The notes under the pieces: model-generated
The model's input: the letters and a program-made list of their open reading frames with translations, nothing else
What the model was told of the DNA's origin: nothing
Databases searched by the model: none
Translations under genes and position numbers: made by a program
Shown here: one piece after another, positions 14,408 through 45,369 of the stretch
How the letters are laid out: each line of letters opens with the position of its first letter
Numbering within the stretch: the stretch's first letter is position 1
Assembly (NCBI RefSeq): GCF_014199525.1
Contig: NZ_JACHNU010000001.1
Span: 186,001 to 250,000, forward strand
Reading direction: 5' to 3'
Origin: Conexibacter arvalis
GTDB taxonomy: Bacteria > Actinomycetota > Thermoleophilia > Solirubrobacterales > Solirubrobacteraceae
Length of the DNA: 64,000 bases

Positions 14408-15709
14408 TCAGGAGGGTGGCGACAGCGCCCGGTCGCCGAGCGCCTGCGCGATCTTCAACGCCAGCTCGAGCTCGAGCCGCCGCTCGTCGATCGAGCGGCC
14501 GAGCAGGTCCTCGGCCGAGCGGATCCGGTACAGGACCGTGTTCTTGTGGACGTTCAGCCGCTCAGCGGCCGAGCGGGCGTTGGCGCCGTGCGCGAAGTAG
14601 ACGGTCAGCGTCTCGCGCAGCCGCGCGGCGGCGGGGTCGTCCTCGGCGAGGCCGCCGAGCGTGCGCGCGACGAAGCGGCGCATCCGGCCGTGCTCCTCGG
14701 CGACGAGCGAGACGAGCTCGAGCTCGTCGTAGCGGAAGACCTTCGCGCCCGGGATGCCGGTGTTGGCGACATGATGGGCGTGGACGGCCTCCTGATGGCC
14801 GTTGCGGAAGCCGGGGAGGCCGCCGTCGACGGTGCCGAGCGCGACGTACTGGCGCTCGCGACAGCGGCGCCCGACGATCTCCGCCACCTCCTCCATCGGG
14901 AGCGGCCGCTCCAGCCCGATCCACGTCCAGAGCGTCGAGGAGCCGGCCGGCGCCGTCAACGCCCGGTGGGCGCCGAGGTCCCGCGCGATCGCGGTGGCGA
15001 GCGCTTCGAGCCCGGCCAACACGTCAGCGACGCTGCCGCCCTGCTCGGTGCTCCACAACACTGCCGGCACGAGCGGGCGGCGCAGCTCGAAGCCGAGCGT
15101 GCGCGACGCGGCGTCGACGTCGGCGCCGTCCCGGTCGTCGAGCACCGAGCGCACGATCTCGGCGCGGTGGGCGGAGGCGCTGTCGATCCAATGCCTGCGC
15201 TCGCGCTGGTAGTGCTCGATCACCTTGTCGACCGCGAGCTCCATGTAATCGAAGTAGCGCCGCGAGAAGTCCTCGTAGACGGCGAGCACGGTCGCCGGGT
15301 CCTCCACCCGCGCTCTGATCTCGCTCAACCAGCCGGTCAGCGACCAGCGCGGGCCGCGCATGTACGCGCGCGAGATCATCTCGGGGTCGCCGCCGCGCCG
15401 CAGGATCGTCGTCGCCATCTCGAACGCCTCCGGCGGCGGCTCGGCCGGCGCCCCGGGCCGGCCGTCGGCGAGGTGCTCCAGGTAGCAGCGGAGGTTGGCC
15501 CGCATGCTGCGGCGGCAGTCCTCGCGGATCGCCTCGTCGGCCCGCACGTCGGGCAGCGCGTCGATGCAGACGCGCAGGCCCTCCTCGGCGAGGCGATCGA
15601 GGTCGGAGAGCTTGCGCTCCGCGATCGCAGCCACGTGCGCGGAGACCTCCTCCGGCGACGGAAGCGACTCGCGCGCCTGTCCCGTTTCCACCGTGACCGT
15701 CCTCGCCAT
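14408..15709 (-). CDS. PucR-family transcriptional regulator
   Basis: The 433-residue protein has the same plan as the 5938-7233 product: a helical N-terminal domain (ISRAYMRGPRWSLTGWLSEI, then RRYFDYMELAVDKVIEHYQR), a middle CdaR-like domain and a C-terminal PucR helix-turn-helix (LRETLTVYFAHGANARSAA, then HKNTVLYRIRSAEDLLGRS). The two proteins look clearly homologous but not nearly identical. The ATG at 15709 lies 6 bp after the hydratase stop, so it is probably cotranscribed with that gene and perhaps the thiolase further up. It is the likely local regulator of this hydratase/thiolase block and perhaps of the ketone-carboxylase operon. Confidence 0.86.
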   Translation of the reverse strand: MARTVTVETGQARESLPSPEEVSAHVAAIAERKLSDLDRLAEEGLRVCIDALPDVRADEAIREDCRRSMRANLRCYLEHLADGRPGAPAEPPPEAFEMATTILRRGGDPEMISRAYMRGPRWSLTGWLSEIRARVEDPATVLAVYEDFSRRYFDYMELAVDKVIEHYQRERRHWIDSASAHRAEIVRSVLDDRDGADVDAASRTLGFELRRPLVPAVLWSTEQGGSVADVLAGLEALATAIARDLGAHRALTAPAGSSTLWTWIGLERPLPMEEVAEIVGRRCRERQYVALGTVDGGLPGFRNGHQEAVHAHHVANTGIPGAKVFRYDELELVSLVAEEHGRMRRFVARTLGGLAEDDPAAARLRETLTVYFAHGANARSAAERLNVHKNTVLYRIRSAEDLLGRSIDERRLELELALKIAQALGDRALSPPS

Positions 15710-16637: not shown

Positions 16638-17807
16638 TCAGCGCGCCAGGATCGAGATCGACACCGCGGCCAGCCCCGCTCCGAGCCACCCGCCTCCGTT
16701 CTCCGCGAGGGCGACGCGCGCGCCCTCGACCTGCCGCGCGCCCGCGCCGCCGCGCAGCTGGGTCACCAGCTCGACGATCTGCGAGCAGCCGGTCGCGCCG
16801 ATCGGATGGCCCTTGGAGATCAGCCCGCCGCTCGGGTTCAGCGGGAGCCGCCCGCCGAGCGACGACGCTCCCGAGCGCAGCAGCCCCACGCCGCCGCCGC
16901 CGGCCTCCACGAGGCCGAGCTCCTCGGGCACGGTCAGCTCCGCGGGCGCGGCCGCGTCGTGCAGCTCGACGAGGTCGATCGCGTCCGGCCCGACGCCGGC
17001 CTCCCGGTAGGCGGCCTGGGCCGCCGTCGCGATCGGGCTCGGCTCGGCCCGCCCAGTGCCGGAGCGCAGCACGCTGGAGAGGACCCGCACCGGGTCGGCG
17101 TCCATCCGCTCCAGCCCGCGCGCGGAGGCGAGCAGGACCGCCGCGGCGCCGTCGCCGATCGGCGAGCACATCAGCAGCGTCAGCGGGTCGGAGACCGTGC
17201 GCGACGCGAGCACCTCGTCGACGGTGACCTCGTCGCGGAACTGCGCGACCGGATTGTGCGCCGCGTTGCGATGCGACTTGACCGCGACCGCCGCGAGGTC
17301 CGCCGCCGTCGCGCCCTGGCGCGCCATCGCCTCGCGCGCCATCCGCGCGTAGATGTCCATGAACATCGAGCGCTGCGGCGCCCCGTCGCTCGGCGGCAGC
17401 TCCTCCTGGTCGACCGCGCCGCCGAAGGCCGAGAAGCTGACGGCCTTGTCCTCGTGCGACAGTCTCTCGGCGCCGATCGCCAGCACGACGTCGGCCGCGC
17501 CCGAGGCGATCGCCGAGACGCCGAGGCCGAAGGCCGTCGCGCCCGACGCGCACGCGTTCTCGACGTTGACGATCTGGGTGCCGAGCAGGCCGGTGCGGCG
17601 CAGCGCGACCTGCCCGCGGATCATCTCCTGACCGGTCACCAGGCCGGCCGCCGCGTTGGCGAAGAAGATCGAGTCGATCGCGTCGGGCTCGGCTCCCGCG
17701 TCGGCGAGCACGCCCGCGACGGCCTCCTCGGCCAGGTCGCGCAGCGTGCGGTCGTGGAACTTGCCGAAGGGGGTGTTGGCGACCCCCGCTGCAAAGACCT
17801 CGCGCAT
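16638..17807 (-). CDS. SCPx-type thiolase / acetyl-CoA acyltransferase
   Basis: The 389-residue protein is a thiolase of the SCP2-thiolase (lipid-transfer) branch. The nucleophilic Cys is in NVENACASGATAF (about residue 86). The C-terminal LNPSGGLISKGHPIGATGCSQ gives the catalytic His, with a Cys nearby. It would cleave a 3-ketoacyl-CoA with CoA in the cytosol. The ATG at 17807 follows GGAGAG. It diverges from the ligase/carboxylase operon across a 261-bp gap with a long palindrome. That suggests it thiolyses the 3-keto-acyl-CoA made by the ligase from the carboxylated ketone, as in anaerobic acetophenone degradation. Confidence 0.87.
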   Translation of the reverse strand: MREVFAAGVANTPFGKFHDRTLRDLAEEAVAGVLADAGAEPDAIDSIFFANAAAGLVTGQEMIRGQVALRRTGLLGTQIVNVENACASGATAFGLGVSAIASGAADVVLAIGAERLSHEDKAVSFSAFGGAVDQEELPPSDGAPQRSMFMDIYARMAREAMARQGATAADLAAVAVKSHRNAAHNPVAQFRDEVTVDEVLASRTVSDPLTLLMCSPIGDGAAAVLLASARGLERMDADPVRVLSSVLRSGTGRAEPSPIATAAQAAYREAGVGPDAIDLVELHDAAAPAELTVPEELGLVEAGGGGVGLLRSGASSLGGRLPLNPSGGLISKGHPIGATGCSQIVELVTQLRGGAGARQVEGARVALAENGGGWLGAGLAAVSISILAR

Positions 17808-17897
17808 GTCGGCTTCTCTCCGTCGTCGTGGGGTGAGGCGCACGACCGCGGCCGGCGCACGACGAGCGTAGGCGGGGCCGTCGCCGCCGCCTTCTAC

Positions 17898-17933
17898 GTC
17901 GATGCCAACGCGCCGGCGCGCGTTCGCATCGAC
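17898..17933. promoter_or_regulatory. 36-bp palindrome between divergent thiolase and ligase/carboxylase genes
   Basis: Left arm GTCGATGC-C-AACGCGC (17898-17913) and right arm GCGCGTT-C-GCATCGAC (17918-17933) pair over 15 of 16 positions, with a single C/C mismatch and a CGGC centre. It lies about 90 bp from the thiolase start and 136 bp from the ligase start. Its size and position fit an operator for a dimeric or tetrameric regulator acting both ways. Confidence 0.55.
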
Positions 17934-18068
17934 GCCGAAGCCGCCGCCGCGACCCGCCCGTAGCCTCGCCGAGCGCGCCCACCGCCGACGCCCGGCGCGG
18001 AACGGCGGAGCGCAGAGAGACCGGCCCGCGCGGCACGCCCGCGGCGGGCGCCAGTGAGAGGGAGGGCA

Positions 18069-19625
18069 ATGACCAGTCGCTTGGATCCGGCTGCACTGTC
18101 GAGGACGGGCGCCGAGCAGCACGGCGATCGGACCGCGCTGATCTGCGGGTCCTTCACGCAGACCTACGCCGAGCTGCACGAGCGCGGGCGGCGGCTCGTC
18201 GCCGTGCTGCGCGGGCTGGGCGTCGAGCGCGGCGAGCGCGTCGCGGTGCTCGCCGACAACTCGCCGGAGGCGCTGGAGATCATCTCCGGCCTGGCGACCG
18301 GCGGCTTCGTGCGCGCGACGCTCTATGCCCACAACAGCCCGGGCTCCAACCTCTACCTGCTGCAGCTCGTCGACGCCGCGGTGCTGCTCGTCCAGCGCCG
18401 CCACCACGACGCGATCCGCCACCTGCTGCCGCAGGCGCCGGCGCTGCGCCACGTGATCGTCTTCGACGGCGAGACGCCGGCCGGCGCGCTCCCGTACGAC
18501 CGGCTGCTGGCGGCGGCCGACCCCGCTCCGGAGGAGCCGCTGCCCGCGCTCGACGAGCTGCAGCTGATCCGCTTCTCGGCCGGCACGACCGGCAAGCCGA
18601 AGGCGATCGTCCACCTCGTCCACCAGCGGTCGGCGATCGCCCTGCAGATGTCGCGCCTGCTCGGGCCGCTCGACCCGAGCGACCGCTACGTCGCGGCGGC
18701 GCCGCTGTCGCACGCGACGTCGCTGCCGGTGTGGCCGATCATGGCGGCCGGCGGCGCGGTCGTGCTGCTGCGCCGCTTCGACGCCGGTGACCTGCTCGCG
18801 GCGATCGGGCGCGAGCGCGCGTCGATCACCTTCGGCGTGCCGACGATGGTCGACGCGGTCGCCCGCCACCCAGACGCGGCGACGACCGACCTCGGCAGCC
18901 TGCGCGCCTTCGTCTACGGCGGCGCGCCGATGACGCCGGCGGTGCTGACGCGAGGCCGCGCGGTCTTCGGCGACGTCTTCATGCAGCTGTACGGGCAGAG
19001 CGAGGCCGGCGTCCCGCTCACCGTCCTGCGCCCGGAGGAGCACGTCGGCGCCGACGCCGCGCGGCTGCGCTCGGTCGGGCGTGCGATGCAGGACACGACG
19101 ATCACGATCGTCGACGACGACCTGCGCCCGCTGCCGCCCGGCACGGTCGGCGAGGTCGCCGCGAGGTCGCCCGGGGCGATGGAGGGCTTCTGGGGCGATC
19201 CCGACGCGACCGCGCAGCGCAAGCTGCCCGACGGCACCGTGCTGACGCACGACATGGGCTACCTCGACGAGGACGGCTTCCTCTACCTGACCGACCGCAA
19301 GGAGGAGATGATCATCTCGGGCGGCTTCAACATCTGGCCGGCGGAGCTGGAGGCGGCGCTCGCCGACCATCCCGCCGTCCGCGAGGTCTCGGTCTTCGGG
19401 ATCCCGCACGAGCGGTGGGGCGAGACGCCGATGGCGGTCGTCGTGCTCGAGCCCGGCGCGGAGGCGACCGAGGAGGAGCTCGTCACGTGGTCGCGAGAGC
19501 AGCTCGGCGCGGTCAAGCGGGTCACGGCCGTCGCCTTCGCCGACGACCTGCCGCGGACTCCGATCGGCAAGGTGCTGCGGCGCAAGGCCCGCGAGCTGCA
19601 CGGCCCCTCGGCGGCGAAGGGCTGA
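18069..19625 (+). CDS. AMP-forming acyl-CoA ligase (candidate beta-keto-acid CoA ligase)
   Basis: The 518-residue protein is an ANL-superfamily ligase. It has the P-loop RFSAGTTGKPKAIVH (about residue 177), YGQSEAG (about 315), the TLTDRKEEMIISGGFNIW-type hinge region (about 410-427; the sequence begins YLTDRKEE) and the catalytic Lys in TPIGKVLRRKARE near the end. It adenylates a carboxylate and transfers it to CoA. ATG 18069 follows GAGAGGGAGGG. It is first in an operon and only 4 bp before the first carboxylase gene. In the known acetophenone pathway a benzoylacetate-CoA ligase is encoded with the carboxylase, so a 3-oxo acid is the likely substrate here; this is inference. Confidence 0.85.
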   Translation: MTSRLDPAALSRTGAEQHGDRTALICGSFTQTYAELHERGRRLVAVLRGLGVERGERVAVLADNSPEALEIISGLATGGFVRATLYAHNSPGSNLYLLQLVDAAVLLVQRRHHDAIRHLLPQAPALRHVIVFDGETPAGALPYDRLLAAADPAPEEPLPALDELQLIRFSAGTTGKPKAIVHLVHQRSAIALQMSRLLGPLDPSDRYVAAAPLSHATSLPVWPIMAAGGAVVLLRRFDAGDLLAAIGRERASITFGVPTMVDAVARHPDAATTDLGSLRAFVYGGAPMTPAVLTRGRAVFGDVFMQLYGQSEAGVPLTVLRPEEHVGADAARLRSVGRAMQDTTITIVDDDLRPLPPGTVGEVAARSPGAMEGFWGDPDATAQRKLPDGTVLTHDMGYLDEDGFLYLTDRKEEMIISGGFNIWPAELEAALADHPAVREVSVFGIPHERWGETPMAVVVLEPGAEATEEELVTWSREQLGAVKRVTAVAFADDLPRTPIGKVLRRKARELHGPSAAKG

Positions 19626-19629
19626 GGCG

Positions 19630-21489
19630 ATGGCGACCACGATCGACATCGACACCGGCGGCACCTTCACCGACGGGTTCGTCGTCCGCGACGGCGTCCC
19701 GCACACCGTCAAGGTGCTGACGACGCCGCACGACTTCGCGGTCTGCTTCCGCGAGGTGATCGCGGCCGCGGCCGACGCCGTCGACCTCTCCGTCCCCGAG
19801 CTGCTGCGCGAGACCCGCTGCGTCCGCTACGCGACGACCGTCGGCACCAACGCGCTGATCCAGCGCCGCGGCCCGCGGCTCGGCGCCGTGCTCGACACCG
19901 GCGCGGGCGCCGGCGACCCGGCCCGCTGGGGTGCCGGGGTGCTCGTCGACGCGGCGATGGTCGCGCCCGCGCCCGACGGCGAGGTCGCGCGCGACGGCGA
20001 CGCGGCCGAGCAGATCGTCGGCGCGGCGCGCAGGCTGCTCGCCGAGGGCGCCCGCAGCCTCGTCGTCTCGCTCGACGGCGAGCGCTCGCAGGCCGTCGAG
20101 GCGCGCGTGCGCGAGCTGTTCGAGGAGGCCTTCCCGCGCCACTGCCTCGACACCGTCCCGCTCCTGCTCGGCAGCGAGCTGACCGACGACCCCGACCCGG
20201 CCCGCCGCGCGGCGACGGCGCTCTTCAACGCCTACGTCCACCCAGACGTCGCCGACTACCTCTACCGCGCCGAGGACTTCCTGCGCGACAACGGCTACGA
20301 CCGGCCGCTGCTGATCGTCCACAACTCCGGCGGCGTCTCGCGCGTCGCGCGCACCGTCGCCGCCCGCACCTTCAACTCCGGCCCGATGGCCGGGCTGCTC
20401 GGAGCGCGGGCGCTGGCGCGCGCGCTCGACCTCGGCGACCTCGTCACGCTCGACATGGGCGGGACGAGCATCGACGTCGCGTTCGTCGGCCCGGAGCGGC
20501 TGCCGATGCGCGAGCACGGGCTCGTCGACGAGACCGTCGAGATCTCGCTGCCGCTGCCGGAGATCCTCGGCCTCGGCGCCGGCGGCGGGTCGATCGCCTG
20601 GCTCGACGACGGCGAGCTGCGCGTCGGCCCGCGCAGCGCCGGCGCCAAGCCCGGCCCCGCCTGCTTCGGCCTCGGCGGGACCGAGCCGACGCTGACCGAC
20701 GCCGACGTCGTGCTCGGCGTCCTGCGGCCGGAGCGGTTCATGGGCGGCGGGATGGCGATCGACGTCGACGCGGCCGCGCGCGCCGTCGCGACGATCGCCG
20801 AGCCGCTCGGCATCGGCGTCGAGCAGGCCGCCAGCCGCATCCGCGCGACCGTCCACCGCGACGTCGCCGAGCGGCTCGCGGCCGAGCTGCGCGCGCGCGA
20901 CCTCGAGCCGGGCGCCGTGACGGCGCTCGCGTTCGGCGGCAACGGCGCGACGCACGGCGCCGAGATCGCCGACCTCGCCGGCCTGGAGCGGATGGTCGTC
21001 GTCCCCTTCTCGCCCGTCTTCAGCGCCTTCGGCGCCTCGACCGCCGACGTCGCCCACCGCCACGAGGCGCGGGCCGACGGCGGCGCCGGCGCAGAGGAGC
21101 TGCGCAGCCGCGCGCTGCGCGACATGCGCGGCGAGGGCTACGCGCCGGACGAGGTGCGGGTCGAGGTCGCGGAGGTCGAGCGCGACGGCGTCGCATGGAC
21201 GGTCGTCGAGGCGACGGCGGCGCTCGGCGGCGGCGTGCCCGACCGCGGGCTCCCCACCGCCGCGCACGAGCCGCCGCCGGCGGCGACGCGCGAGGTGCGC
21301 TGGAGCGAGGCCGAAGCCGTCGCGACGGCCGTGCTCGACCGCGAGCGCGCCGCGGCGGAGGGCGTCGTCGCCGGCCCGGCGCTCGTCGACGCACCGATGA
21401 CGACGTGCGTCGTGCCGGCCGGCTGGCAGATGGAGACCGACGAGCGGGGAGTCCAGCGGCTCTCCCGGACCCGCGGGAGCGGACGATGA
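19630..21489 (+). CDS. HyuA-type subunit of a ketone (acetophenone/acetone-like) carboxylase
   Basis: The 619-residue protein has the hydantoinase A/oxoprolinase actin-like ATPase pattern: IDIDTGGTFTDGFV at the N-terminus, TTVGTNALIQRRGPRLG near residue 75, LIVHNSGGVSRVA near 235, VTLDMGGTSIDVAF near 275, and GPACFGLGGTEPTLTDADV near 345. A C-terminal region of about 100 residues ends in a PALVDAPMTTCVVPAGW motif. In acetone and acetophenone carboxylases such subunits use ATP to activate the ketone enolate or bicarbonate. It is about 90 residues shorter than its paralogue at 21851, matching the unequal pair in the acetophenone enzyme. ATGA overlap with the next gene shows coupling. Confidence 0.85.
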   Translation: MATTIDIDTGGTFTDGFVVRDGVPHTVKVLTTPHDFAVCFREVIAAAADAVDLSVPELLRETRCVRYATTVGTNALIQRRGPRLGAVLDTGAGAGDPARWGAGVLVDAAMVAPAPDGEVARDGDAAEQIVGAARRLLAEGARSLVVSLDGERSQAVEARVRELFEEAFPRHCLDTVPLLLGSELTDDPDPARRAATALFNAYVHPDVADYLYRAEDFLRDNGYDRPLLIVHNSGGVSRVARTVAARTFNSGPMAGLLGARALARALDLGDLVTLDMGGTSIDVAFVGPERLPMREHGLVDETVEISLPLPEILGLGAGGGSIAWLDDGELRVGPRSAGAKPGPACFGLGGTEPTLTDADVVLGVLRPERFMGGGMAIDVDAAARAVATIAEPLGIGVEQAASRIRATVHRDVAERLAAELRARDLEPGAVTALAFGGNGATHGAEIADLAGLERMVVVPFSPVFSAFGASTADVAHRHEARADGGAGAEELRSRALRDMRGEGYAPDEVRVEVAEVERDGVAWTVVEATAALGGGVPDRGLPTAAHEPPPAATREVRWSEAEAVATAVLDRERAAAEGVVAGPALVDAPMTTCVVPAGWQMETDERGVQRLSRTRGSGR

Positions 21490-21854
21490 ACGGCGAGCAG
21501 CGCATCGCGATCACCGAGTACCTCGACGTCGACCTCGCGTCGGAGCAGTGGACCTGCCGCCGCTGCGACGCGGCGCTCGGCGACGCGGCCGACGACTACA
21601 AGCGGCACCTGCTGATCCACGACCGCGACCCGCGCGAGGTCCACCCGGCGCGGTTCGCGACCGAGCACTCCTACGCGCCCGACCCGGCGTGGTGCCGGAT
21701 CGTCGAGTTCTACTGCCCGTCGTGCGGGACGCAGGTCGAGACCGAGTACCTGCCGCCCGGCCATCCGCTCACGCGCGACATCGAGATCGACCTCGCGTCG
21801 CTGCGGCGGATCGCCGCCGAGCGCGCCGGCGAGCGGGCGGAGGAGGCCCGATGA
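21486..21854 (+). CDS. small zinc-finger subunit of a ketone carboxylase
   Basis: The 122-residue protein has two Cys pairs, WTCRRCDAAL (about residues 19-22) and FYCPSCGTQVE (about 76-79), which look like a zinc site. Between them is a His-rich stretch (KRHLLIHDRDPREVH). The C-terminal LPPGHPLTRDIEIDL resembles the small gamma-type subunit of acetone and acetophenone carboxylases. It overlaps both neighbours by 4 bp. It lies between the two HyuA-like genes, as the small subunit gene does in the acetophenone carboxylase cluster as I recall it. It is probably needed for assembly or metal binding. Confidence 0.75.
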   Translation: MNGEQRIAITEYLDVDLASEQWTCRRCDAALGDAADDYKRHLLIHDRDPREVHPARFATEHSYAPDPAWCRIVEFYCPSCGTQVETEYLPPGHPLTRDIEIDLASLRRIAAERAGERAEEAR

Positions 21855-23983
21855 CCGAGATCAACGTCGACATCGGCGGCACCTTCACCGACTGCGTCGC
21901 GACGCGCGCCGACGGCACCGTCGCGACCGCGAAGGCGCTGACGACCCACCACGACCTCTCCGCCGGCTTCCTGCGGGCCGTCGGCGAGCTCGCCGGCGCC
22001 TTCGGCGTCGCGACCGACGAGCTGCTCGCCGAGACGGAGGCGATCCGCTACGCCACGACGCTCGGCACCAACGCGCTGATCGAGCGCAACGGGCCGCGTC
22101 TGGGCCTGCTGACGACGATGGGCCACGAGGACACCGTCCCGATCGGGCGCTGCCGCCAGTGGGGCGACGGGCTGGCGGCGAGCGAGACGCGCGACCTCGC
22201 GCGGGCCGAGCGCCCGGTCCCGCTGATCGACCCGGAGCGGATCGTCACGCTCGTCGAGCGGGTCGACTACGACGGCAGGGTCCTGATCCCGCTCGACGAG
22301 GAAGAGGTCCGCGACCGCCTCCAGCAGCTCGTCGGGCAGGGCGTGCGCGGCTTCGTCGTCGGCCTGATGAACGCCCACGCCAACCCCGACCACGAGCTGG
22401 CGGTGCGGCGCGTGATCGAGCAGGAGTACCCGAGCCAGTTCCTCGGCCGCTTCCCCGTGATCTGCTCGCACGAGGTCTCGCGCCGCTCCGGCGAGTACGT
22501 GCGCCAGATGACGGCGATCATCGACGCCTACCTGCACCGCTTCACCGCCGACCGGCTCTCCGACCTGCGCGACCGGCTGCGCGACCGCGGCTACGGCGGC
22601 CAGCTGCTGCTCGTCCACAACTCAGGCGGGATGGGCAGCCTCGCGCGCACGACCCCGGTGCAGACGGTCCACGCCGGCCCGGTCTCGGGCCTGTACGGGT
22701 CGCGCCGCGTCGCCGAGGCGCACGGCTACGACAGCGTCGTCACGACCGACATGGGCGGCACGTCGTTCGACGTCGGCGTCGTCGTCAGGGGCTCGGTGCG
22801 CTTCTACGACTTCAACCCCGTGATCGACCGCTGGCGCGTGCAGGTGCCGATGATGGACATCAAGGCGATCGGCGCCGGCGGCGGCTCGATCGCGCGCGTC
22901 GACCCGATCGCCGGCGTCGCCGTCGGCCCGGCGTCGGCCGGCTCGAACCCCGGCCCGGCCTGCTTCGGCCAGGGCGGCTCGGAGCCGACGGTGACCGACG
23001 CCAACCTCGTGCTCGGCTACCTCGACCCCGACAACTACCACGACGGGGCGATCAAGCTCGACCGCCGCCGCGCCGAGCGCGCGATCGAGCGCCGGATCGC
23101 GAGGCCGCTCGGGATCGACGTGATCGAGGCCGCCCGCCGCATCCGCCGCGTCGTCGACGAGCGCATGGGCGCGGAGATGTTCCGCGAGATCACCGTCAAG
23201 GGCTATGACCCGCGCGACTTCGCCGTCTTCTCGTTCGGCGGCGGCGGTCCGCTGCACGCGTGCGGGTACGCGGCCGCGCTCGACGCGCCGAAGGTCGTCG
23301 TCCCGCCGCACAGCTCCGTCTTCTCGGCCTCCGGCGCGGCGGGGCTGGAGCTGCTGCACATCTACGAGCGGTCGACCTGGATGATGCTGTTCGACCCGCT
23401 CACCAAGCGGCGTCTCACCGACTTCGCGCGCTTCAACGCGATCGTCGAGGAGTGCCGTGCGCAGGCGGTCGCCGACTTCGCCGCCGACGGCTACGGCCCC
23501 GACGACTTCGAGGTCACGCTCGAGCTCGACTGCCGCTCGTCGGGGCAGCTGTTCGTCACGACCTTCGCCAGCCCGGTCGAGCGGATCGAGAGCGACGCCG
23601 ACCTGATCGCGGTGATCGAAGCGTACTTCGCCGAGTTCCGCGACCGCTTCGGCGACCTCGCGCTGACGAAGGAGGTCGGCGTCTCGATCGACGTCGTGCG
23701 CCTGCGGGCGCGCGTCCCGCGCGAGCCGCTGCGCAGAGCGGCGCGGCCGTCGCGGGAGGGCGGGATCGAGGCGGCCCGGACCGGCGAGCGCGACTGCTGG
23801 TGGACCGCCGGCGGTCTCGCCCGCACGCCGGTCTACGCCTACCGGCGGCTCGCCGACGGCGCCGCGATCTCCGGCCCGGCGGTGATCGAGGCGCCTGACA
23901 CGACGATCCTCGTCGACCCCGGCTGGCACGGCCGGATGGACGAGCACGGCTTCTTCACGATGACGCGGGAGGACGCGGCATGA
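21851..23983 (+). CDS. second HyuA-type subunit of a ketone carboxylase
   Basis: The 710-residue protein has the same HyuA/oxoprolinase plan with well conserved motifs: INVDIGGTFTDCVATR, TTLGTNALIERNGPRLG, LLVHNSGGMGSLART (about residue 260), VTTDMGGTSFDVGV (about 300), GPACFGQGGSEPTVTDANL (about 375) and FSFGGGGPLHACGYA (about 465). The C-terminal half-domain ends GPAVIEAPDTTILVDPGWHG. It is full length for the family. Overlaps of 4 bp at both ends place it inside a coupled operon with the small zinc subunit before and the HyuB-like subunit after, so equal production of subunits is likely. Confidence 0.87.
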   Translation: MTEINVDIGGTFTDCVATRADGTVATAKALTTHHDLSAGFLRAVGELAGAFGVATDELLAETEAIRYATTLGTNALIERNGPRLGLLTTMGHEDTVPIGRCRQWGDGLAASETRDLARAERPVPLIDPERIVTLVERVDYDGRVLIPLDEEEVRDRLQQLVGQGVRGFVVGLMNAHANPDHELAVRRVIEQEYPSQFLGRFPVICSHEVSRRSGEYVRQMTAIIDAYLHRFTADRLSDLRDRLRDRGYGGQLLLVHNSGGMGSLARTTPVQTVHAGPVSGLYGSRRVAEAHGYDSVVTTDMGGTSFDVGVVVRGSVRFYDFNPVIDRWRVQVPMMDIKAIGAGGGSIARVDPIAGVAVGPASAGSNPGPACFGQGGSEPTVTDANLVLGYLDPDNYHDGAIKLDRRRAERAIERRIARPLGIDVIEAARRIRRVVDERMGAEMFREITVKGYDPRDFAVFSFGGGGPLHACGYAAALDAPKVVVPPHSSVFSASGAAGLELLHIYERSTWMMLFDPLTKRRLTDFARFNAIVEECRAQAVADFAADGYGPDDFEVTLELDCRSSGQLFVTTFASPVERIESDADLIAVIEAYFAEFRDRFGDLALTKEVGVSIDVVRLRARVPREPLRRAARPSREGGIEAARTGERDCWWTAGGLARTPVYAYRRLADGAAISGPAVIEAPDTTILVDPGWHGRMDEHGFFTMTREDAA

Positions 23984-26118
23984 GCGCGGCGACGACGGAC
24001 TACTTCGAGCAGCTGCTGTCGGGCCGGCCGGTCCTGTACGGGCCGGACCGCGAAATCATGGAAGAGCACCGGATCCCGCCGCGGACCGCGCGCGAGGAGG
24101 AGGCGCTCGCCGCGATCGCCGACCCGGCCGACGTGACGGTCGCGCACGCGCGGCTGGAGGCGGTGCTGGAGTCGGCGATGGAGGTGCTGCAGCAGATCTG
24201 CGTCGCGCCCGGCGCGAAGTGGGGCGACCTGACGGTCGGCATCTACTCGCGCGCCGGCGACCTCGCGCTCGCGAGCACGCGCGGCGTGAACATGTTCTCG
24301 GCGGCCGTCTCGCCGGTGCCGAAGTTCATCGGCAAGCACTGGGCCGACGAGCCGACCGTCGGCGTCCGGCCGGGCGACGTCTTCTTCCACAACGACTCGA
24401 CCTACGGCGGCACGCACAACCCCGACCACACCGTGCTCATCCCGCTCTTCTGGGAGGACGAGCACGTCGCCTGGATCGGGACGGTGATGCACGAGGGCGA
24501 CAACGGCGCGCTCGACCCCGGCGGCTTCGCGCCGTCGGCGACGACGCGCTTCGGCGAGGGCCTGCGGATCGCGCCGATGAAGATCGGCGAGAACCACGTG
24601 CTGCGGCGCGACGTGCTCAACATGTTCCAGAACCAGGTGCGCGACCCGCTCGCCTGGCTCGTCGACACGCGCGCCAAGCACTCCGCCGTGCGCGACGTCG
24701 AGCAGCGGCTGCACGACCTGATGCGCGAGCACTCGCCCGAGCTGCTGATCGCGACGCTGCGGCATCTGCTGGAGAGCACCGAGGCCGAGGTCGCCAAGCG
24801 AGTCGCGGCGTGGCCCGACGGCCGCTTCCGCTCCGTCTGCTTCGGCGACACGACGCTCCACGAGGAGCGGCTGTTCAAGCTCGCGGTCGAGATCGAGAAG
24901 CGCGGCAGCAGGCTGACCGTGCGCACGCACGGCTCGGCGCCGCAGATCGATCGCGCGATCAACGCGCAGGCGCATTACGTGCGCTCGATCGTCGGCAACG
25001 AGTTCATGGCGTTCCTGTTTGCCGACCTGCCGCGCAACGCCGGCTTCGTCTCGGCGCTCGAGTTCGACTTCGAGCCCGGCTCGATGCTCGCCGCCGACGA
25101 CGACCAGCCGACATCGCTGTCGATGCTCAGCTCGTTCGCGATGAACACGGCGCTGCACGTCGCGCTGACGAAGGCGCTGTTCGCGAACCCCGGCCAGACC
25201 GTCCCGATCGCGCCCTGGTACGCGATGATCCCGACGCTGCGGATGGCCGGCCTCAACCAGCACGGCCAGCTGCTGGCGCGCAGCGCCGTCGAGATGAACG
25301 CCGCCGGCGGCGGCGCCCGCCACGACCGCGACGGCGAGCACGCCTGCGCGCCGTTCTTCGCGACGCTCGCCGACTGGGGCGAGATGGAGGAGCGCGAGGC
25401 GGAGTTCCCGGTCGTCGGCCTGTGGCGGCGGATCCCGGAGGACAACCACGGCTTCGGCCGCCACCGCGGCGGCGCGTCGGTCGAGTGGGCTTACATGCTC
25501 TACGGCAGCAGAAGGTTCGTCTTCGCCGAGACGAGCACGGGCGGGCGCTTCCCGGTCACCGGCGGCCTGTTCGGCGGCTACGGCGGGCCGTGCACGCCGC
25601 TGACGCGCGTGCGGCCGCGCAACGGATTCGAGGACGTGCGGGCGTGGCTGGCCGCCGGCGCCGAGGGCCTCTCCTACGACGCCGCGAAGGTCGTCGAGCG
25701 CCGCCCGATCGACGCCGACTACACCGTCAGCAGACCGGACGTGATCCCGGCGCCGGTCGTCGAGGGCGAGTTCTGGATCCAGCGGATGGGCGGCGGCGGG
25801 GGCTACGGCGACCCGCTCGAGCGCGAGCCCGAGGAGGTCGCCGTCGACCTGCGCCGCGGGCTGATCAGCCCCGAGGTCGCCAGCTCGGTCTACAAGCTCG
25901 TCTGGAACGGCGACCGCTGCACGCCCGACCTCGACGCGACCGCCGCCGCGCGCGACGCCGAGCGCCGCGCACGGCTGGAGCGCGGGCTTCCGTACGACGC
26001 ATTCGTCGCCGCCTGGCGGCGCGACGCCCCGCCCGCGGAGGTGCCGTACCTTGGCTCGTGGGAGTGGGAGGCGCCGGCGGAGTGGGCGTCGGAGTCCGAG
26101 TCGGAGGAGGCGGCGTGA
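23980..26118 (+). CDS. HyuB-type (carboxylase alpha-like) subunit of a ketone carboxylase
   Basis: The 712-residue protein belongs to the hydantoinase B/acetone carboxylase alpha family. It has VRPGDVFFHNDSTYGGTHNPD near residue 130, GTVMHEGDNGALDPGG near 165, PMKIGENHVLRRDVLNMF near 200, and in the C-terminal half FPVTGGLFGGYGGPC near 525 and a Gly-rich RMGGGGGYGDPLERE near 600. These proteins carry the carboxylation site of acetone and acetophenone carboxylases. It overlaps its neighbours by 4 bp on each side. With two HyuA-like subunits, one zinc subunit and one HyuB, the set matches acetophenone carboxylase better than the three-subunit acetone carboxylase or the two-subunit hydantoinase. 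Confidence 0.87.
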   Translation: MSAATTDYFEQLLSGRPVLYGPDREIMEEHRIPPRTAREEEALAAIADPADVTVAHARLEAVLESAMEVLQQICVAPGAKWGDLTVGIYSRAGDLALASTRGVNMFSAAVSPVPKFIGKHWADEPTVGVRPGDVFFHNDSTYGGTHNPDHTVLIPLFWEDEHVAWIGTVMHEGDNGALDPGGFAPSATTRFGEGLRIAPMKIGENHVLRRDVLNMFQNQVRDPLAWLVDTRAKHSAVRDVEQRLHDLMREHSPELLIATLRHLLESTEAEVAKRVAAWPDGRFRSVCFGDTTLHEERLFKLAVEIEKRGSRLTVRTHGSAPQIDRAINAQAHYVRSIVGNEFMAFLFADLPRNAGFVSALEFDFEPGSMLAADDDQPTSLSMLSSFAMNTALHVALTKALFANPGQTVPIAPWYAMIPTLRMAGLNQHGQLLARSAVEMNAAGGGARHDRDGEHACAPFFATLADWGEMEEREAEFPVVGLWRRIPEDNHGFGRHRGGASVEWAYMLYGSRRFVFAETSTGGRFPVTGGLFGGYGGPCTPLTRVRPRNGFEDVRAWLAAGAEGLSYDAAKVVERRPIDADYTVSRPDVIPAPVVEGEFWIQRMGGGGGYGDPLEREPEEVAVDLRRGLISPEVASSVYKLVWNGDRCTPDLDATAAARDAERRARLERGLPYDAFVAAWRRDAPPAEVPYLGSWEWEAPAEWASESESEEAA

Positions 26119-26906
26119 GCGCCGCCTTCGCGCCGCTCCTGGATCGGCTGGCGCGGCGCCTGTCGCCGGATGCGCCGGCGGTCGCCGACGCCCCGGAGCG
26201 GTGGGCGTACGCGCTGCGCGACGCGGTCGACGCGGTCGCGCCCGACTGGATCGTCACCCATCGCGACGACGCGCTCGAGGCCGGCGCGATCGCCGCGCAG
26301 CTCGCGGCGGGGGCCGACCCGATGGACCTCGACCCCGCGGCCGTCCCCGCGGTCGCGGCGACGCTCGACTGCGCGGGCACGCTCGCGTCGCTCTACCCCG
26401 ACCGCGTCGTCGCCGCGTCGCTGACCGGCCCGGTGCGGCTGCGCGACGCGGTCGCGGAGGCGCTCGGCGACGACGGCGCGGCGCTCGACCGCGACGACCT
26501 GCTCGCCGACTGCGGCGACGCGCTGGCGCGGCTGGCGGCCGCGTACGCGGAGCGCGGCGTCACGCGGATCGTCGTCTGGGAGGGCGAGCCGTCGCCCGCG
26601 GCGGCGCCCGCCCCCGCGGCGGCCCACGAGCCGCTGCTGCGCCGCCTGGAGCTGCTGGGCGTCGAAGCGGTGCTGTGCGGCGGCAGCGACCTCGCGCCGG
26701 CCCGCTATGCCGGCCACGCGTGCGCGGGCGGCGGCAGCGGCGCGGCGCTGCTGGACCCGTGCGCCTTCGAGCCGGCGCGCGCTGCCCGCGCAGGCGACGC
26801 GCTCGCCGCGGCCGCGTCCGCCGCCGGTCCCGCCGGCGTCGTGCTCTCCGACGGGCCGCTCAGCCCCGACACCGACCTCGCCGCGCTGCGGGCCGCGCGC
26901 GCCTGA
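26115..26906 (+). CDS. fifth gene of the ketone carboxylase operon; possible accessory subunit
   Basis: The 263-residue protein begins at a GTG overlapping the previous stop (GTGA). It is Ala- and Asp-rich, with LDRLARRLSPDAPAVADAP at the start, APDWIVTHRDDALEAGAI near residue 45 and DCAGTLASLYPDR near 90. It ends with a LSPDTDLAALRAARA tail. I recognise no firm domain, although the alternating strand/helix pattern resembles a TIM barrel such as a decarboxylase-like fold. By place and size it could be the equivalent of the fifth (Apc5-like) subunit of acetophenone carboxylase, which is reported to be needed for activity. That assignment rests on context only. Confidence 0.6.
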   Translation: MSAAFAPLLDRLARRLSPDAPAVADAPERWAYALRDAVDAVAPDWIVTHRDDALEAGAIAAQLAAGADPMDLDPAAVPAVAATLDCAGTLASLYPDRVVAASLTGPVRLRDAVAEALGDDGAALDRDDLLADCGDALARLAAAYAERGVTRIVVWEGEPSPAAAPAPAAAHEPLLRRLELLGVEAVLCGGSDLAPARYAGHACAGGGSGAALLDPCAFEPARAARAGDALAAAASAAGPAGVVLSDGPLSPDTDLAALRAARA

Positions 26907-31903: not shown

Positions 31904-32721
<818 letters not shown>

Positions 32722-32725
<4 letters not shown>

Positions 32726-33483
32726 CGCGCCGCCATCCGGATCGATCCGTCGAGGCGGATCGTCTCGCCGTTGAGCATCGGGTTGGCGACGATCGCCTCG
32801 ACGAGCGCCGCGAACTCCTGCGGACGGCCGAGCCGGCTCGGATGCGGCACCTGCGCGCTGAGCGAGCGGATCGCCTCGTCGGAGAGCGTCGCGAACAGCG
32901 GCGTCTCGAACAGGCCGGGCGCGACCGTCACGACCCGGATCAGGTGCTCGGCCATCTCCCGCGCGATCGGCAGCGTCATCCCGGCGACGCCGCTCTTGGA
33001 GGCCGAGTAGGCGGCCTGGCCGACCTGGCCGTCGAAGGCCGCGACCGACGCGGTGTTGACGATCACGCCGCGCTCCTCGCCCAGCGGGGCGGTCGCGATC
33101 ATCGCCGGCGCCGCCAGCCGGATCACGTTGAACGTCCCGATCAGGTTGATCTCGACGACGCGGCGGAACTCCTCCAGCGGCATCGGCCCGCGCTTGGAGA
33201 CGACCCGTCTCGGCGGCCCGATGCCGGCGCAGTTGACGACCGCGCGCAGCGGGCCGAGCCCGGTCGCGGTCTCGACCGCCGCGGCGACCTGCGCCTCGTC
33301 GGTCACGTCGGCGGCCGCGAAGGCGACGCGCTCCCCGAGTCGCTCGGCGACCGCGGCGCCGTCCGAGGACGGGAGGTCGACGATCGTCACGCTCGCGCCC
33401 GCGGCGACGAGCCGCTCCACCGTCGCCAGCCCGAGGCCGGAGGCGCCGCCCGTCACGAGCGCGCCGTTGTCTGCGATCTGCAC
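32722..33483 (-). CDS. SDR-family 3-hydroxyacyl-CoA dehydrogenase (type II/HSD10-like)
   Basis: The 253-residue protein has TGGASGLG near residue 11, an Asp in VTIVDLPSSDG that favours NAD, NCAGIGPPRRVV near 86, NTASVAAFDGQVGQAAYSASKSG with the catalytic Ser, Tyr and Lys, and ETIRLDGSIRMAAR at the end. The pattern, including a GPMPLEEFRRVVEINLIGTFNV helix, matches type II 3-hydroxyacyl-CoA dehydrogenases. GTG 33483 follows AGGAGAG. It lies between the thiolase (27 bp) and the hydratase (4-bp overlap), so hydratase, dehydrogenase and thiolase make one beta-oxidation set. Confidence 0.87.
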
Positions 33484-33510
33484 TGCTCTCCTGCCTTCTC
33501 TCGTGTCTCT

Positions 33511-34686
33511 CTAGATGCGCTCGACGATCGTGGCGTTCGCCATCCCGCCGCCTTCGCACATCGTCTGCAGCCCGTAGCGGGCGCCGGTCGCCTCCAAGTG
33601 GCCGACGAGCGTCGCCAGCAGCCGCGTCCCGGAAGCGCCCAGCGGATGGCCGAGCGCGATCGCGCCGCCGCGCGGGTTGACGCGCGCGAGGTCGGCGCCG
33701 GTCTCGCGCTGCCACATCAGGGGCACGGGCGCGAACGCCTCGTTGACCTCGAAGGCGTCGATCTCGCCGATCCCGAGGCCGGCGCGCGCGAGCGCCCGCT
33801 CGGTCGCGGGCACGACGCCGGTCAGCATCAGGAACGGGTCGCTGCCGACGACGGAGAAGGCGCGCACCCGCGCCCGCATCCGCAGGCCGAGCTCGCGCGC
33901 CTTCCGCTCGCTCACGATCAGCGCCGCCGACGCGCCGTCGGTCAGCGGCGACGAGTTGCCCGGCGTGATCCGCCACGCCGCCTCGGGGAAGCGGGCCGCG
34001 GCCTCGTCGGTGCGGAAGGCCGGCCGCAGCGCCGCCAGGCCCTCTGCGGTCGTCCCGGCGCGGACGGTCTCGTCGACGGTGAATGCGCGCCCGTCGAGCG
34101 CGACCGGGACCAGCTCGCCGTCGAAGCCGCCGGCCGCAGCGGTCGCCGCCGCGAGCTCGTGTGAGCGCGCCGAGAACTCGTCCAGCTCGCCCCGCTCCAG
34201 CCCCCAGCGCGCCGCGATCAGCTCGGCGGAGATGCCCTGCTGCACGAGGCCCTTGGGATAGCGCGCCGCCAACGGCGCCTGCGGCTCCGCCCCCTGCGCG
34301 TTGGAGAACATCGGCACCCGGCTCATCGACTCGACGCCGCATGCGATCGCGACGTCGTAGGCGCCGGCCATCACGCCCTGCGCGGCGAAGTGGACCGCCT
34401 GCTGGCTGGAGCCGCACTGGCGGTCGATCGTCGTCGCCGGGACCGACTCCGGGAAGCCGGCCGCCAGCAGCGCCGTGCGGCCGACGTTGAGCGCCTGCTC
34501 GCCGCTCTGCGACACGCAGCCGGCGATCACGTCGTCGACGAGCGCGGGGTCGACTCCCGTCCGTTCCACCAGCGCGGCGAGCACGGTCGCAAGCAGCGTC
34601 GCCGGATGAGTCTCCGACAGCGCCCCGCCGGGCTTCCCCTTTCCGGACGGCGTGCGGACGACGTCCACGATCACGGCAGCGTTCAC
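33511..34686 (-). CDS. acetyl-CoA acyltransferase (thiolase, FadA type)
   Basis: The 391-residue thiolase has all catalytic landmarks: the nucleophile in TIDRQCGSSQQAVHFA (about Cys 88), NEAFAPVPLMWQRETG, GGAIALGHPLGASGTRL with the catalytic His near 348, and the second Cys in LQTMCEGGGMANA near 378. The start opens with AAVIVDVVRTPSGKGKPGG. It should release acetyl-CoA or propionyl-CoA from 3-ketoacyl-CoA. GTG 34686 follows AGGAGGA, and its start overlaps the LivG-like gene by 4 bp, so the transporter and beta-oxidation genes are on one transcript. Confidence 0.9.
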   Translation of the reverse strand: MNAAVIVDVVRTPSGKGKPGGALSETHPATLLATVLAALVERTGVDPALVDDVIAGCVSQSGEQALNVGRTALLAAGFPESVPATTIDRQCGSSQQAVHFAAQGVMAGAYDVAIACGVESMSRVPMFSNAQGAEPQAPLAARYPKGLVQQGISAELIAARWGLERGELDEFSARSHELAAATAAAGGFDGELVPVALDGRAFTVDETVRAGTTAEGLAALRPAFRTDEAAARFPEAAWRITPGNSSPLTDGASAALIVSERKARELGLRMRARVRAFSVVGSDPFLMLTGVVPATERALARAGLGIGEIDAFEVNEAFAPVPLMWQRETGADLARVNPRGGAIALGHPLGASGTRLLATLVGHLEATGARYGLQTMCEGGGMANATIVERI

Positions 34687-35438
34687 TGATCCTCCTGTGC
34701 GGTTCCGAGATATGCCTCTCTGACGGCCGGCTGGTCGAGCACCGACGGCGGGCCGTCGGCGAGCTTGACGCCGTAATCGAGCACCACCACGCGCGCGCAG
34801 AGCCTGCGCACCCAGTCGACGTCGTGCTCGACCATCAGCACCGCGACGCCGGAGGCCGGCAGGCCGGCGAGCAGCTCCGCCATCGCCCCGCGCTCCGCGC
34901 TCGAGAGGCCGGAGAGCGGCTCGTCGAGCAGCAGCAGCCGCGGTCTCATCAGCAGCGCGCGGGCGAGGTCGACGCGGCGGCGGACGCCGAACGGCAGGTC
35001 CGCGACCGGGTGGTGGCGCAGGTCGGCGAGGCCGACGTCCGCGAGCGCCTGCTCGGCCAGCTCGCGCACCTGCGCGCGCCGCCGCGGCGCGAGCCAGCCG
35101 AGCCACGGCGCCCACGCGAAGCCGCCGAGCAGCACGTTGTCCAGGCAGGTGAGGCCGTCGAGCAGCTGCGCCTGCTGGAAGGTGCGGCCGATGCCGCGCG
35201 CCGCACGACGGTGCGACGGCAGCGGCAGCACGTCGCGGCCGTCGTGCACGACCTCCCCGGCGCTCGCGCGCACGAGGCCCGAAATCGCGTTGATGAGCGT
35301 CGTCTTGCCGGCCCCGTTGGGGCCGACGAGGCCGACGAAGCCCTCCGGCGGCACCTCCAGACCGACGTCGGCGAGCACCGGCGCGCCGCCGAACGAGACG
35401 GTCACGCCGGAGACGCGCAGCAGCACGTCGTCGGTCAT
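34683..35438 (-). CDS. branched-chain-type ABC transporter ATP-binding protein (LivG-like)
   Basis: The 251-residue ATPase has Walker A GPNGAGKTTLIN near residue 41, GIGRTFQQAQLLDGLT near 90, Walker B RLLLLDEPLSGLS near 165 and H-loop VLMVEHDVDWV. The signature is altered to LPFGVRRRVDLARAL (LivG usually LSYGQQRR). The C-terminal DYGVKLADGPPSVLDQPAVREAYLG is typical of LivG. It overlaps both neighbours by 4 bp. It pairs with the LivM-LivF fusion to power uptake of an organic acid or similar substrate, in the cytosol on the membrane face. Confidence 0.9.
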   Translation of the reverse strand: MTDDVLLRVSGVTVSFGGAPVLADVGLEVPPEGFVGLVGPNGAGKTTLINAISGLVRASAGEVVHDGRDVLPLPSHRRAARGIGRTFQQAQLLDGLTCLDNVLLGGFAWAPWLGWLAPRRRAQVRELAEQALADVGLADLRHHPVADLPFGVRRRVDLARALLMRPRLLLLDEPLSGLSSAERGAMAELLAGLPASGVAVLMVEHDVDWVRRLCARVVVLDYGVKLADGPPSVLDQPAVREAYLGTAQEDQ

Positions 35439-37279: not shown

Positions 37280-38139
37280 GCCCGTTGCACCGTCTGGGTC
37301 CCGAACAGGCCGCTCGGCCGGATCGTGAGCGTGAGCAGGACGAGCGCGAACAGCGCGACGGTCGCCGCCTGGCCGCCGAGCAGCTGTGCGGCGACCTGGA
37401 GCGTGAGCGCGGCCAGCGCAGCCCCGGCGAAGACGCCACCGAGGCTGTCGAGCCCGCCGATCACGGCCGGCGACAGCGCGCCGAGCCCGATCATGATCAG
37501 CGTCGAGCTGGCGCCGAGCCGGTAGCCGTAGCCCATCGCAGCGATCGCCGCGATCACCGCGCCGCTGCAGAAGGCGACGAGGAAGATCCGCTCGACCCGC
37601 AGCCCGGTCTGGCTCGCCAGCAGCGGGTCGGCGCTGGCCGCGCGGATCGCGAGGCCGGCGCGCGTCCACTTCTGCCACGACAGCGTCGCCGCCATCGCGG
37701 CCAGCGCGAGCCCGACCAGCGCCAGCTCGAGCACGGTCAGGCGCGCTCCGCCGATCGAGAGGTAGGACTCGGGGAGCGGGGAGGCGAGCTGGTAGCTGCC
37801 CGACCCCCACACCCACGAGAAGACGCCCTCGAGCGCGATCCCGAGCCCGAGCGTGACCACCGCGGCGGCCCACAGCGACCGCCGCTTGACCGACTGGCGC
37901 AGCAGCACGCCGAGCGCGACGCCGAGCGGCACCTGGATCGCGAGCACGCACAGCAGCACGACCCACGAGCTGCCGATCACCGTCTGGAGGCTGTACGCGA
38001 CGTAGACGGTGAGCAGCATCAGGTGGCCCTGCGCGAGGTTGAACACGCCGGTCGTCTTGAACACCAGGACGAAGGCGAGCCCCGCCAGCGAGAACAGGCT
38101 CCAGTCGCGCAGCGAGCCCACGAGGACGTCGAGGACCAT
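37276..38139 (-). CDS. branched-chain-type ABC transporter permease (LivH-like)
   Basis: The 287-residue membrane protein has about eight hydrophobic segments and LivH motifs: GLAFVLVFKTTGVFNLAQGHLM near residue 20 (split across TM1-TM2), RRSLWAAAVVTLGLGIALEG near 86, RAGLAIRAASADPLLASQTGL near 160, and a GALSPAVIGGLDSLGGVFAG loop near 220. It forms the channel with the LivM half of the fusion. ATG 38139 follows AGGAGA 9 bp after the binding-protein stop. In LivH the EAA-like loop contacts the ATPases. Confidence 0.9.
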   Translation of the reverse strand: MVLDVLVGSLRDWSLFSLAGLAFVLVFKTTGVFNLAQGHLMLLTVYVAYSLQTVIGSSWVVLLCVLAIQVPLGVALGVLLRQSVKRRSLWAAAVVTLGLGIALEGVFSWVWGSGSYQLASPLPESYLSIGGARLTVLELALVGLALAAMAATLSWQKWTRAGLAIRAASADPLLASQTGLRVERIFLVAFCSGAVIAAIAAMGYGYRLGASSTLIMIGLGALSPAVIGGLDSLGGVFAGAALAALTLQVAAQLLGGQAATVALFALVLLTLTIRPSGLFGTQTVQRA

Positions 38140-38148
38140 CGTCGTCTC

Positions 38149-39354: not shown

Positions 39355-39363
39355 CTCTCCTCC

Positions 39364-41897: not shown

Positions 41898-41962
41898 CGC
41901 GCTCCTTCTCTCCTCTCGCGCCGTGCCGCCGCGCGGGCGGCCGGCCTTCTCCGAGGGCCGCC

Positions 41963-42754: not shown

Positions 42755-42755
42755 C

Positions 42756-45367: not shown

Positions 45368-45369
45368 GG

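What the first reader, a model, noticed from the sequence alone, without database searches (positions are those of the whole stretch)
18069..26906. A complete acetophenone-carboxylase-like operon with ligase in an actinobacterium
The order ligase, HyuA-like (619 aa), small zinc protein (122 aa), HyuA-like (710 aa), HyuB-like (712 aa) and an extra protein (263 aa) mirrors the five-subunit acetophenone carboxylase and its benzoylacetate-CoA ligase as known from denitrifying Aromatoleum. Sizes and the place of the small zinc gene fit that enzyme, not hydantoinase (two genes) or acetone carboxylase (three genes). All five are coupled by 4-bp overlaps, and a thiolase diverges. This predicts ATP-dependent ketone carboxylation, possibly under aerobic conditions, with an unknown ketone.
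Basis: partly seen in the sequence, partly recalled or inferred. Interest (0 to 1): 0.75.

Follow-up and report, generated by a model that had tools for sequence, protein, structure and literature searches.

The report
Acetophenone-carboxylase-type operon in soil actinobacterium
This soil actinobacterium carries a complete five-gene enzyme complex, related to one used by other bacteria to break down the solvent-like ketone acetophenone, that most likely uses ATP and bicarbonate to activate some ketone; the enzyme type is already known, but this branch of it has no tested member that we know of and its ketone is unknown.

Summary
Window 18069-26906 encodes an acyl-CoA ligase and five genes in the order apcABCDE: alpha' (619 aa), zinc gamma (122), alpha (710), beta (712) and epsilon (263). 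Each core subunit matches Aromatoleum acetophenone carboxylase (PDB 5l9w) better than acetone carboxylase or hydantoinase. In trees alpha' and alpha fall inside Apc-type clades; beta does so with weaker support. The fifth protein, the doubtful part, is ApcE-like: its AlphaFold model (pLDDT 94) has the solved ApcE (9fou, a URO-D-type barrel) as top match. A divergent thiolase, enoyl-CoA hydratase and PucR regulator complete a conserved actinobacterial module, so the likely route is ketone, beta-keto acid, beta-ketoacyl-CoA, thiolysis. Two points temper it. The window lies in a deep half of the family separate from the one characterised enzyme, with 5 of 7 proposed ketone-pocket residues changed, and no BoxB benzoyl-CoA route was found; the substrate need not be acetophenone. 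Apc-like clusters in actinobacteria are already reported (Rubrobacter, Rhodococcus ruber, Paraconexibacter), one scan found 430 relatives, and Aromatoleum uses this route aerobically too. A well-supported new member of a known kind.

The parts
14408..15709 (-). PucR-type transcriptional regulator (HTH_30 + GGDEF_2), candidate regulator of the module
   Evidence: Pfam; PucR-type genes lie next to apcA in Amycolatopsis, Prauserella, Nocardia and Saccharomonospora loci at 30-32% identity
15716..16588 (-). enoyl-CoA hydratase/crotonase (start uncertain: 16588 or 16444), both crotonase glutamates present (GGGME, GMPE)
   Evidence: Pfam ECH_1 5e-53, NCBIfam PRK08252 above cut-off, about 60% identical to the hydratase in the same module of four other actinobacteria
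16638..17807 (-). SCP2/BbsB-type thiolase, divergent from the operon; Cys86 (ENACASG), HDA, GHPIGATG motifs
   Evidence: Pfam and NCBIfam; motifs; 60-62% identical thiolase diverges from apcA in two other Solirubrobacteraceae (L021, L025)
17897..17934 (.). inverted repeat, 16 of 17 arm positions complementary, 4-bp spacer, in the divergent intergenic region; candidate operator
   Evidence: no other copy in the window within 3 mismatches, none in 100 shuffles; only one other, 3-mismatch, place in the genome
18069..19625 (+). acyl-CoA ligase (AMP-binding), inferred beta-keto acid:CoA ligase
   Evidence: Pfam PF00501 8e-74; 55-57% identical to the ligase in the same module of Amycolatopsis, Prauserella, Nocardia, Saccharomonospora
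19630..21489 (+). alpha' subunit (ApcA-like), ASKHA-type kinase, inferred bicarbonate-activating
   Evidence: 5l9w chains are best PDB hits; NCBIfam ApcA 4e-105 best; alpha' clade SH-aLRT 100; ATP motifs present
21486..21854 (+). gamma subunit (ApcB-like), Cys4 zinc protein
   Evidence: 5l9w_C 5e-35 against acetone carboxylase gamma 2e-9; ApcB model 3e-43; cysteines
21851..23983 (+). alpha subunit (ApcC-like), ASKHA-type kinase, inferred ketone-activating
   Evidence: 5l9w_B 3e-185 against acetone carboxylase 3e-94; ApcC model 7e-205; 44% identity; tree
23980..26118 (+). beta subunit (ApcD-like) with conserved metal site D83, H146, D149, H171
   Evidence: 5l9w_A 4e-96 against acetone carboxylase 2e-49; metal residues; tree
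26115..26906 (+). epsilon subunit (ApcE-like), URO-D-type barrel
   Evidence: NCBIfam ApcE 2.8e-6; family profile against 9fou 7e-41; AF2 pLDDT 94.1; Foldseek top 9fou E 2e-9, TM 0.71; VIA Z 22.6 over 244 residues

Best explanation
The operon encodes a complete five-subunit, biotin-independent, ATP-dependent ketone carboxylase of the acetophenone-carboxylase type, with its CoA ligase and, divergently, a thiolase and an enoyl-CoA hydratase under a PucR-type regulator. Inferred working: the alpha subunit phosphorylates the enol form of a ketone and alpha' phosphorylates bicarbonate, each with one ATP; the beta subunit, carrying a conserved His/Asp metal site, and the epsilon barrel help bring enol phosphate and carboxyphosphate/CO2 together; the beta-keto acid formed is made into a CoA thioester by the ligase and cut by the thiolase, giving acetyl-CoA (or propionyl-CoA) and a shorter acyl-CoA that enters beta-oxidation. 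The ketone is unknown and probably not handled as acetophenone to benzoyl-CoA. Shown here: gene content, homology, tree position, motifs, epsilon fold. Inferred: every catalytic step, the order of steps and the substrate.
For: Gene order apcABCDE and subunit sizes. Best solved relative of each core subunit is 5l9w. ATP motifs, zinc cysteines and beta metal residues kept. Trees place alpha' and alpha in Apc-type clades, SH-aLRT 100 and 90; beta 70. Epsilon matches solved ApcE 9fou by profile and by fold. Ligase, thiolase, hydratase and PucR gene recur next to the same operon in four other actinobacteria, and the divergent thiolase in two Solirubrobacteraceae.
Against: Scores lie well below NCBIfam's equivalog cut-offs for Apc, so it is not an ortholog in the narrow sense. 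Alpha pocket residues differ (L81T, F281V, N282H, Q344D, T345I) and the E248/K281 pair assigned to the bicarbonate site of alpha' is N/D here. Only one enzyme of the Apc branch was characterised as of the 2017 family paper, so carboxylation by this half of the family is, to our knowledge, untested.
Confidence: 0.8

Rival explanations
1. It is a true acetophenone (aryl alkyl ketone) carboxylase: acetophenone to benzoylacetate, ligase to benzoylacetyl-CoA, thiolase to benzoyl-CoA and acetyl-CoA, as in Aromatoleum.
For: Same subunit set, same gene order and a co-encoded ligase; the thiolase is distantly related to benzoylsuccinyl-CoA thiolase BbsB.
Against: Window subunits lie in the half of the family that does not hold A. 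aromaticum; 5 of 7 pocket residues changed; no BoxB match, and no over-threshold class I benzoyl-CoA reductase ATPase (BcrAD/BadFG) or benzoate dioxygenase in the 99%-complete genome; a hydratase is conserved in the module, not needed for that route.
Confidence: 0.15
2. It carboxylates a small aliphatic methyl ketone such as acetone or butanone, doing in this bacterium the job of acetone carboxylase.
For: Ketone activation chemistry is the same; thiolase and ligase would give acetyl/propionyl-CoA; beta carries the acetone carboxylase Mn ligand triad, though Apc and caprolactamase also keep it.
Against: Sequence and composition are Apc-type, not the three-subunit acetone carboxylase; acetoacetate does not need a dedicated SCP2-type thiolase and hydratase (established knowledge).
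Confidence: 0.15
3. It is an ATP-dependent amide or lactam hydrolase (hydantoinase/oxoprolinase-like), not a carboxylase.
For: Same superfamily; alpha also matches caprolactamase (428 bits).
Against: Trees separate alpha' and alpha from both hydrolase references; gamma, alpha' and epsilon are absent from hydrolases; CoA ligase and thiolase make no obvious sense after amide hydrolysis.
Confidence: 0.04

Closest known systems
Acetophenone carboxylase ApcABCDE with benzoylacetate-CoA ligase, Aromatoleum aromaticum EbN1 (PDB 5l9w core, 9fou epsilon)
   Same: Five subunits in the same gene order, ATP motifs, zinc cysteines, beta metal residues, epsilon fold, co-encoded CoA ligase
   Different: 31-44% identity in the three large subunits, separate deep half of the family, 5 of 7 pocket residues changed, added thiolase/hydratase/PucR module, no BoxB benzoyl-CoA route found
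Apc-like clusters already reported in actinobacteria (Rubrobacter xylanophilus, PMC5214803; Rhodococcus ruber Chol-4, PMC6498646; Paraconexibacter AEG42_29, PMC11737030)
   Same: Apc-type operon predicted from the genome of an actinobacterium
   Different: Those reports give no thiolase context or pocket analysis in the passages read; sequences not compared here
Acetone carboxylase AcxABC (PDB 5svb, 5m45)
   Same: Superfamily, gamma zinc protein, metal triad in the large subunit
   Different: Three genes, one kinase subunit, no epsilon; about half the score or less of Apc
ATP-dependent caprolactamase/N-methylhydantoinase (PDB 6yra, 7hk5)
   Same: alpha and beta folds
   Different: No alpha', gamma or epsilon; separate clade in the alpha tree

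Membership tests
Apc-type ketone carboxylase (criteria of PMC5214803) | Gene order apcABCD(E) | tested here: met
   alpha', gamma, alpha, beta, epsilon in order
Apc-type ketone carboxylase (criteria of PMC5214803) | Tree position with Apc, apart from Acx and Hyd | tested here: met
   alpha' 34 rows one side of a branch, SH-aLRT 100; alpha 34 rows, 90; beta grouping only 70, with long-branch warning
Apc-type ketone carboxylase (criteria of PMC5214803) | Subunit lengths (short gamma without N-terminal extension; beta between Hyd and Acx) | tested here: inconclusive
   gamma 122 aa against 129 in Apc and 168 in Acx chains: met; beta 712 aa is longer than the 684-aa Apc chain and near the Acx figure of about 720
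Apc-type ketone carboxylase (criteria of PMC5214803) | Four zinc cysteines in gamma; ATP signature motifs in both alpha subunits; R/K-ERxDxxG fingerprint in alpha | tested here: met
   C24/C27/C77/C80; DIGGTFTD and DTGGTFTD, DMGGTS, VGPxSAG; alpha has VERVDYDG, its first R/K replaced by V
Apc-type ketone carboxylase (criteria of PMC5214803) | Epsilon subunit | tested here: met
   ApcE HMM 2.8e-6; fold 9fou Z 22.6, Foldseek E 2e-9
Acetophenone carboxylase in the narrow sense (NCBIfam equivalogs) | Scores above the curated equivalog cut-offs | tested here: not met
   352/1250, 147/250, 683/1500, 342/1500, 27/450 bits for ApcA-E
Acetophenone carboxylase in the narrow sense | Acetophenone- and bicarbonate-dependent ATP hydrolysis and benzoylacetate formation | not testable with these tools
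   needs purified complex
Acetone carboxylase | Three-gene acxABC, Acx-type subunits | tested here: not met
   five genes; Acx chains score far below Apc chains
Hydantoinase/oxoprolinase | Two-gene alpha-beta enzyme grouping with hydrolases | tested here: not met
   gamma and epsilon present

The most novel reading that the evidence does not exclude
The window belongs to a second, deep, uncharacterised half of the Apc-type carboxylases that acts on a different ketone class (for example longer-chain, alicyclic or terpenoid ketones) with a rebuilt pair of kinase pockets, and is coupled to a dedicated SCP2-type thiolase and hydratase in aerobic soil actinobacteria.
Probability: 0.4. Interest if true: 0.5.

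Novelty: new member of a known kind. Interest (0 to 1): 0.32.

Why it matters
Biotin-independent ketone carboxylation with two separate kinase sites was known from a single characterised enzyme as of the family's 2017 paper. A complete, self-contained operon with ligase and thiolase in an actinobacterium, from the half of the family with no characterised member known to us, gives a testable second example, offers a candidate type for the thiolase step that was unidentified in Aromatoleum, and shows which pocket residues vary when the substrate may change. It is not a new kind of system.

Tried and rejected
Hydantoinase or oxoprolinase identity: rejected by trees and gene content. Acetone carboxylase: rejected by scores and gene content. 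A BadI-like ring-opening hydrolase for a cyclic ketone: the hydratase next to the thiolase matches ordinary enoyl-CoA hydratase models and BadI is not among its 25 best, so no support, though not excluded. The single-sequence PDB search with the fifth protein found nothing meaningful; the family profile and the fold did. No inverted repeat like the one at 17897-17934 was found in the matching intergenic regions of five relatives. Paper searches for ApcE since 2018, and for acetone carboxylase with acetophenone and cyclohexanone, found nothing; one for ketone carboxylase in actinobacteria gave only an unrelated putative alkyl-phenyl ketone carboxylase. Class II benzoyl-CoA reductase was not tested.

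Full report
Observation. The five genes from 19630 to 26906 are joined by four exact 4-bp overlaps; the ligase precedes them with a 4-bp gap.

Subunit identity. The best solved relatives of the core subunits are all chains of A. aromaticum acetophenone carboxylase 5l9w: alpha' 2e-93, gamma 5e-35 against 2e-9 for acetone carboxylase, alpha 3e-185 against 3e-94, beta 4e-96 against 2e-49. By pairwise score alone alpha' is ambiguous, slightly nearer the ApcC chain in phmmer but nearer the ApcA model in NCBIfam and 35% identical to both; the tree settles it. NCBIfam's five Apc models are the best hits of the five proteins, but all below their equivalog cut-offs.

The fifth protein. Its own sequence gives only 27 bits to the ApcE model. 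A gene follows beta directly in most related operons, and a profile from close copies finds many of these divergent proteins. Ten of 19 aligned members match Pfam URO-D and 16 match ApcE; the family profile finds the solved ApcE 9fou at 7e-41. AlphaFold2 models the window protein with mean pLDDT 94.1. Foldseek ranks 9fou first (E 2e-9, TM 0.71) and URO-D enzymes next; VIA-align gives 9fou Z 22.6, rmsd 2.8 over 244 residues. So the epsilon subunit is present, as a URO-D-type barrel.

Residues. Gamma keeps four zinc cysteines. Both alpha subunits keep the ATP motifs. Beta keeps D83, H146, D149 and H171, invariant in 65 of 65 beta proteins and equivalent to Apc D65/H123/D126/H148; H150, D153 and H175 of acetone carboxylase, its Mn ligands, are the same three positions. 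The Apc paper judged that site less likely for zinc; its equivalence to the acetone carboxylase Mn site makes a catalytic metal there worth testing (inference). Caprolactamase keeps most of it too, so it does not by itself mark carboxylases.

Phylogeny. In one tree of alpha and alpha' all alpha' proteins form one side of a branch (SH-aLRT 100) and alpha proteins another (90), apart from acetone carboxylase, caprolactamase, N-methylhydantoinase and the host's own second HyuA. The beta tree agrees with weaker support and long-branch warnings. Alpha, alpha' and beta all split the Apc-type operons into the same two halves: one holds A. aromaticum, the other holds the window with Solirubrobacteraceae, Amycolatopsis, Prauserella, Nocardia, Gordonia, Nevskiaceae and others. 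Of the seven residues proposed to line the ketone pocket of Apc alpha, five differ in the window (L81T, F281V, N282H, Q344D, T345I); the T and H are shared by every sampled member of its half. The E248 and K281 of alpha' assigned to bicarbonate are N and D. The chemistry is probably shared, the substrate need not be.

Pathway context. Amycolatopsis marina, Prauserella, Nocardia flavorosea and Saccharomonospora carry ligase (55-57%), thiolase (38-40%), enoyl-CoA hydratase (about 60%), two SDRs and a PucR-type regulator next to the same operon; two other Solirubrobacteraceae have a 60-62% identical thiolase diverging from apcA. The window has the same parts apart from the two adjacent SDRs. The thiolase keeps its cysteine and histidine motifs. 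This supports carboxylation, CoA activation and thiolysis, with further beta-oxidation of the product (inference). A 38-bp inverted repeat with 16 of 17 complementary arm positions lies between the divergent genes and has only one weak second place in the genome, a candidate operator.

Physiology. The genome has three COX1 genes and no over-threshold NarG, so it is probably an aerobe. It has no BoxB match and no over-threshold class I benzoyl-CoA reductase ATPase or benzoate dioxygenase. This argues, without proof, against an acetophenone-to-benzoyl-CoA route.

Known status. The Apc structure paper already notes an ApcE relative in Rubrobacter xylanophilus and cautions that only one Apc enzyme is characterised. 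Rhodococcus ruber Chol-4 and Paraconexibacter were reported to carry Apc clusters. A. aromaticum uses the route aerobically too. One scan of public genomes found 430 relatives of the gamma subunit across many phyla. Among 60 relatives of the host only three genomes carry an Apc-type gamma at 55% identity or more, and none of the six others of the same genus, so the operon is patchy. The finding is a good, complete new member of a known kind with an open substrate.

Noticed in passing
L019:4942-9210 (own genome, contig C2): A second HyuA-HyuB pair in the same genome whose HyuA groups with hydrolases in the alpha tree; the HyuB carries a weak acetone-carboxylase-gamma-like zinc domain fused at its C-terminus (residues 652-720), followed by a gene that starts like a CoA-transferase and a hydratase-like gene.
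   Followed up: partly
window 17897-17934: Near-perfect 38-bp inverted repeat in the divergent promoter region, nearly unique in the genome.
   Followed up: partly
L059:15602-16690, L063:15917-16930: CobW-type metal-chaperone-like GTPase gene (Pfam cobW in L059; similar start in L063) directly after the epsilon gene in two Pseudomonadota operons, hinting at a catalytic metal.
   Followed up: no
L070:3593-4978, L041:17966-20263: DUF1329 (L070) and MMPL-type transporter (L041) genes near operons of the window's half of the family in Gammaproteobacteria; genes with starts like the DUF1329 one also in L078 and L035. May point to hydrophobic substrates.
   Followed up: no
L016 and L017 (genome G014): One relative holds two Apc-type operons from different branches of the window's half.
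   Followed up: no
window 31904-46209: A second catabolic cluster on the minus strand with transporter-like genes, thiolase-like genes, two hydratase-like genes, SDRs and a second ligase-like gene.
   Followed up: no
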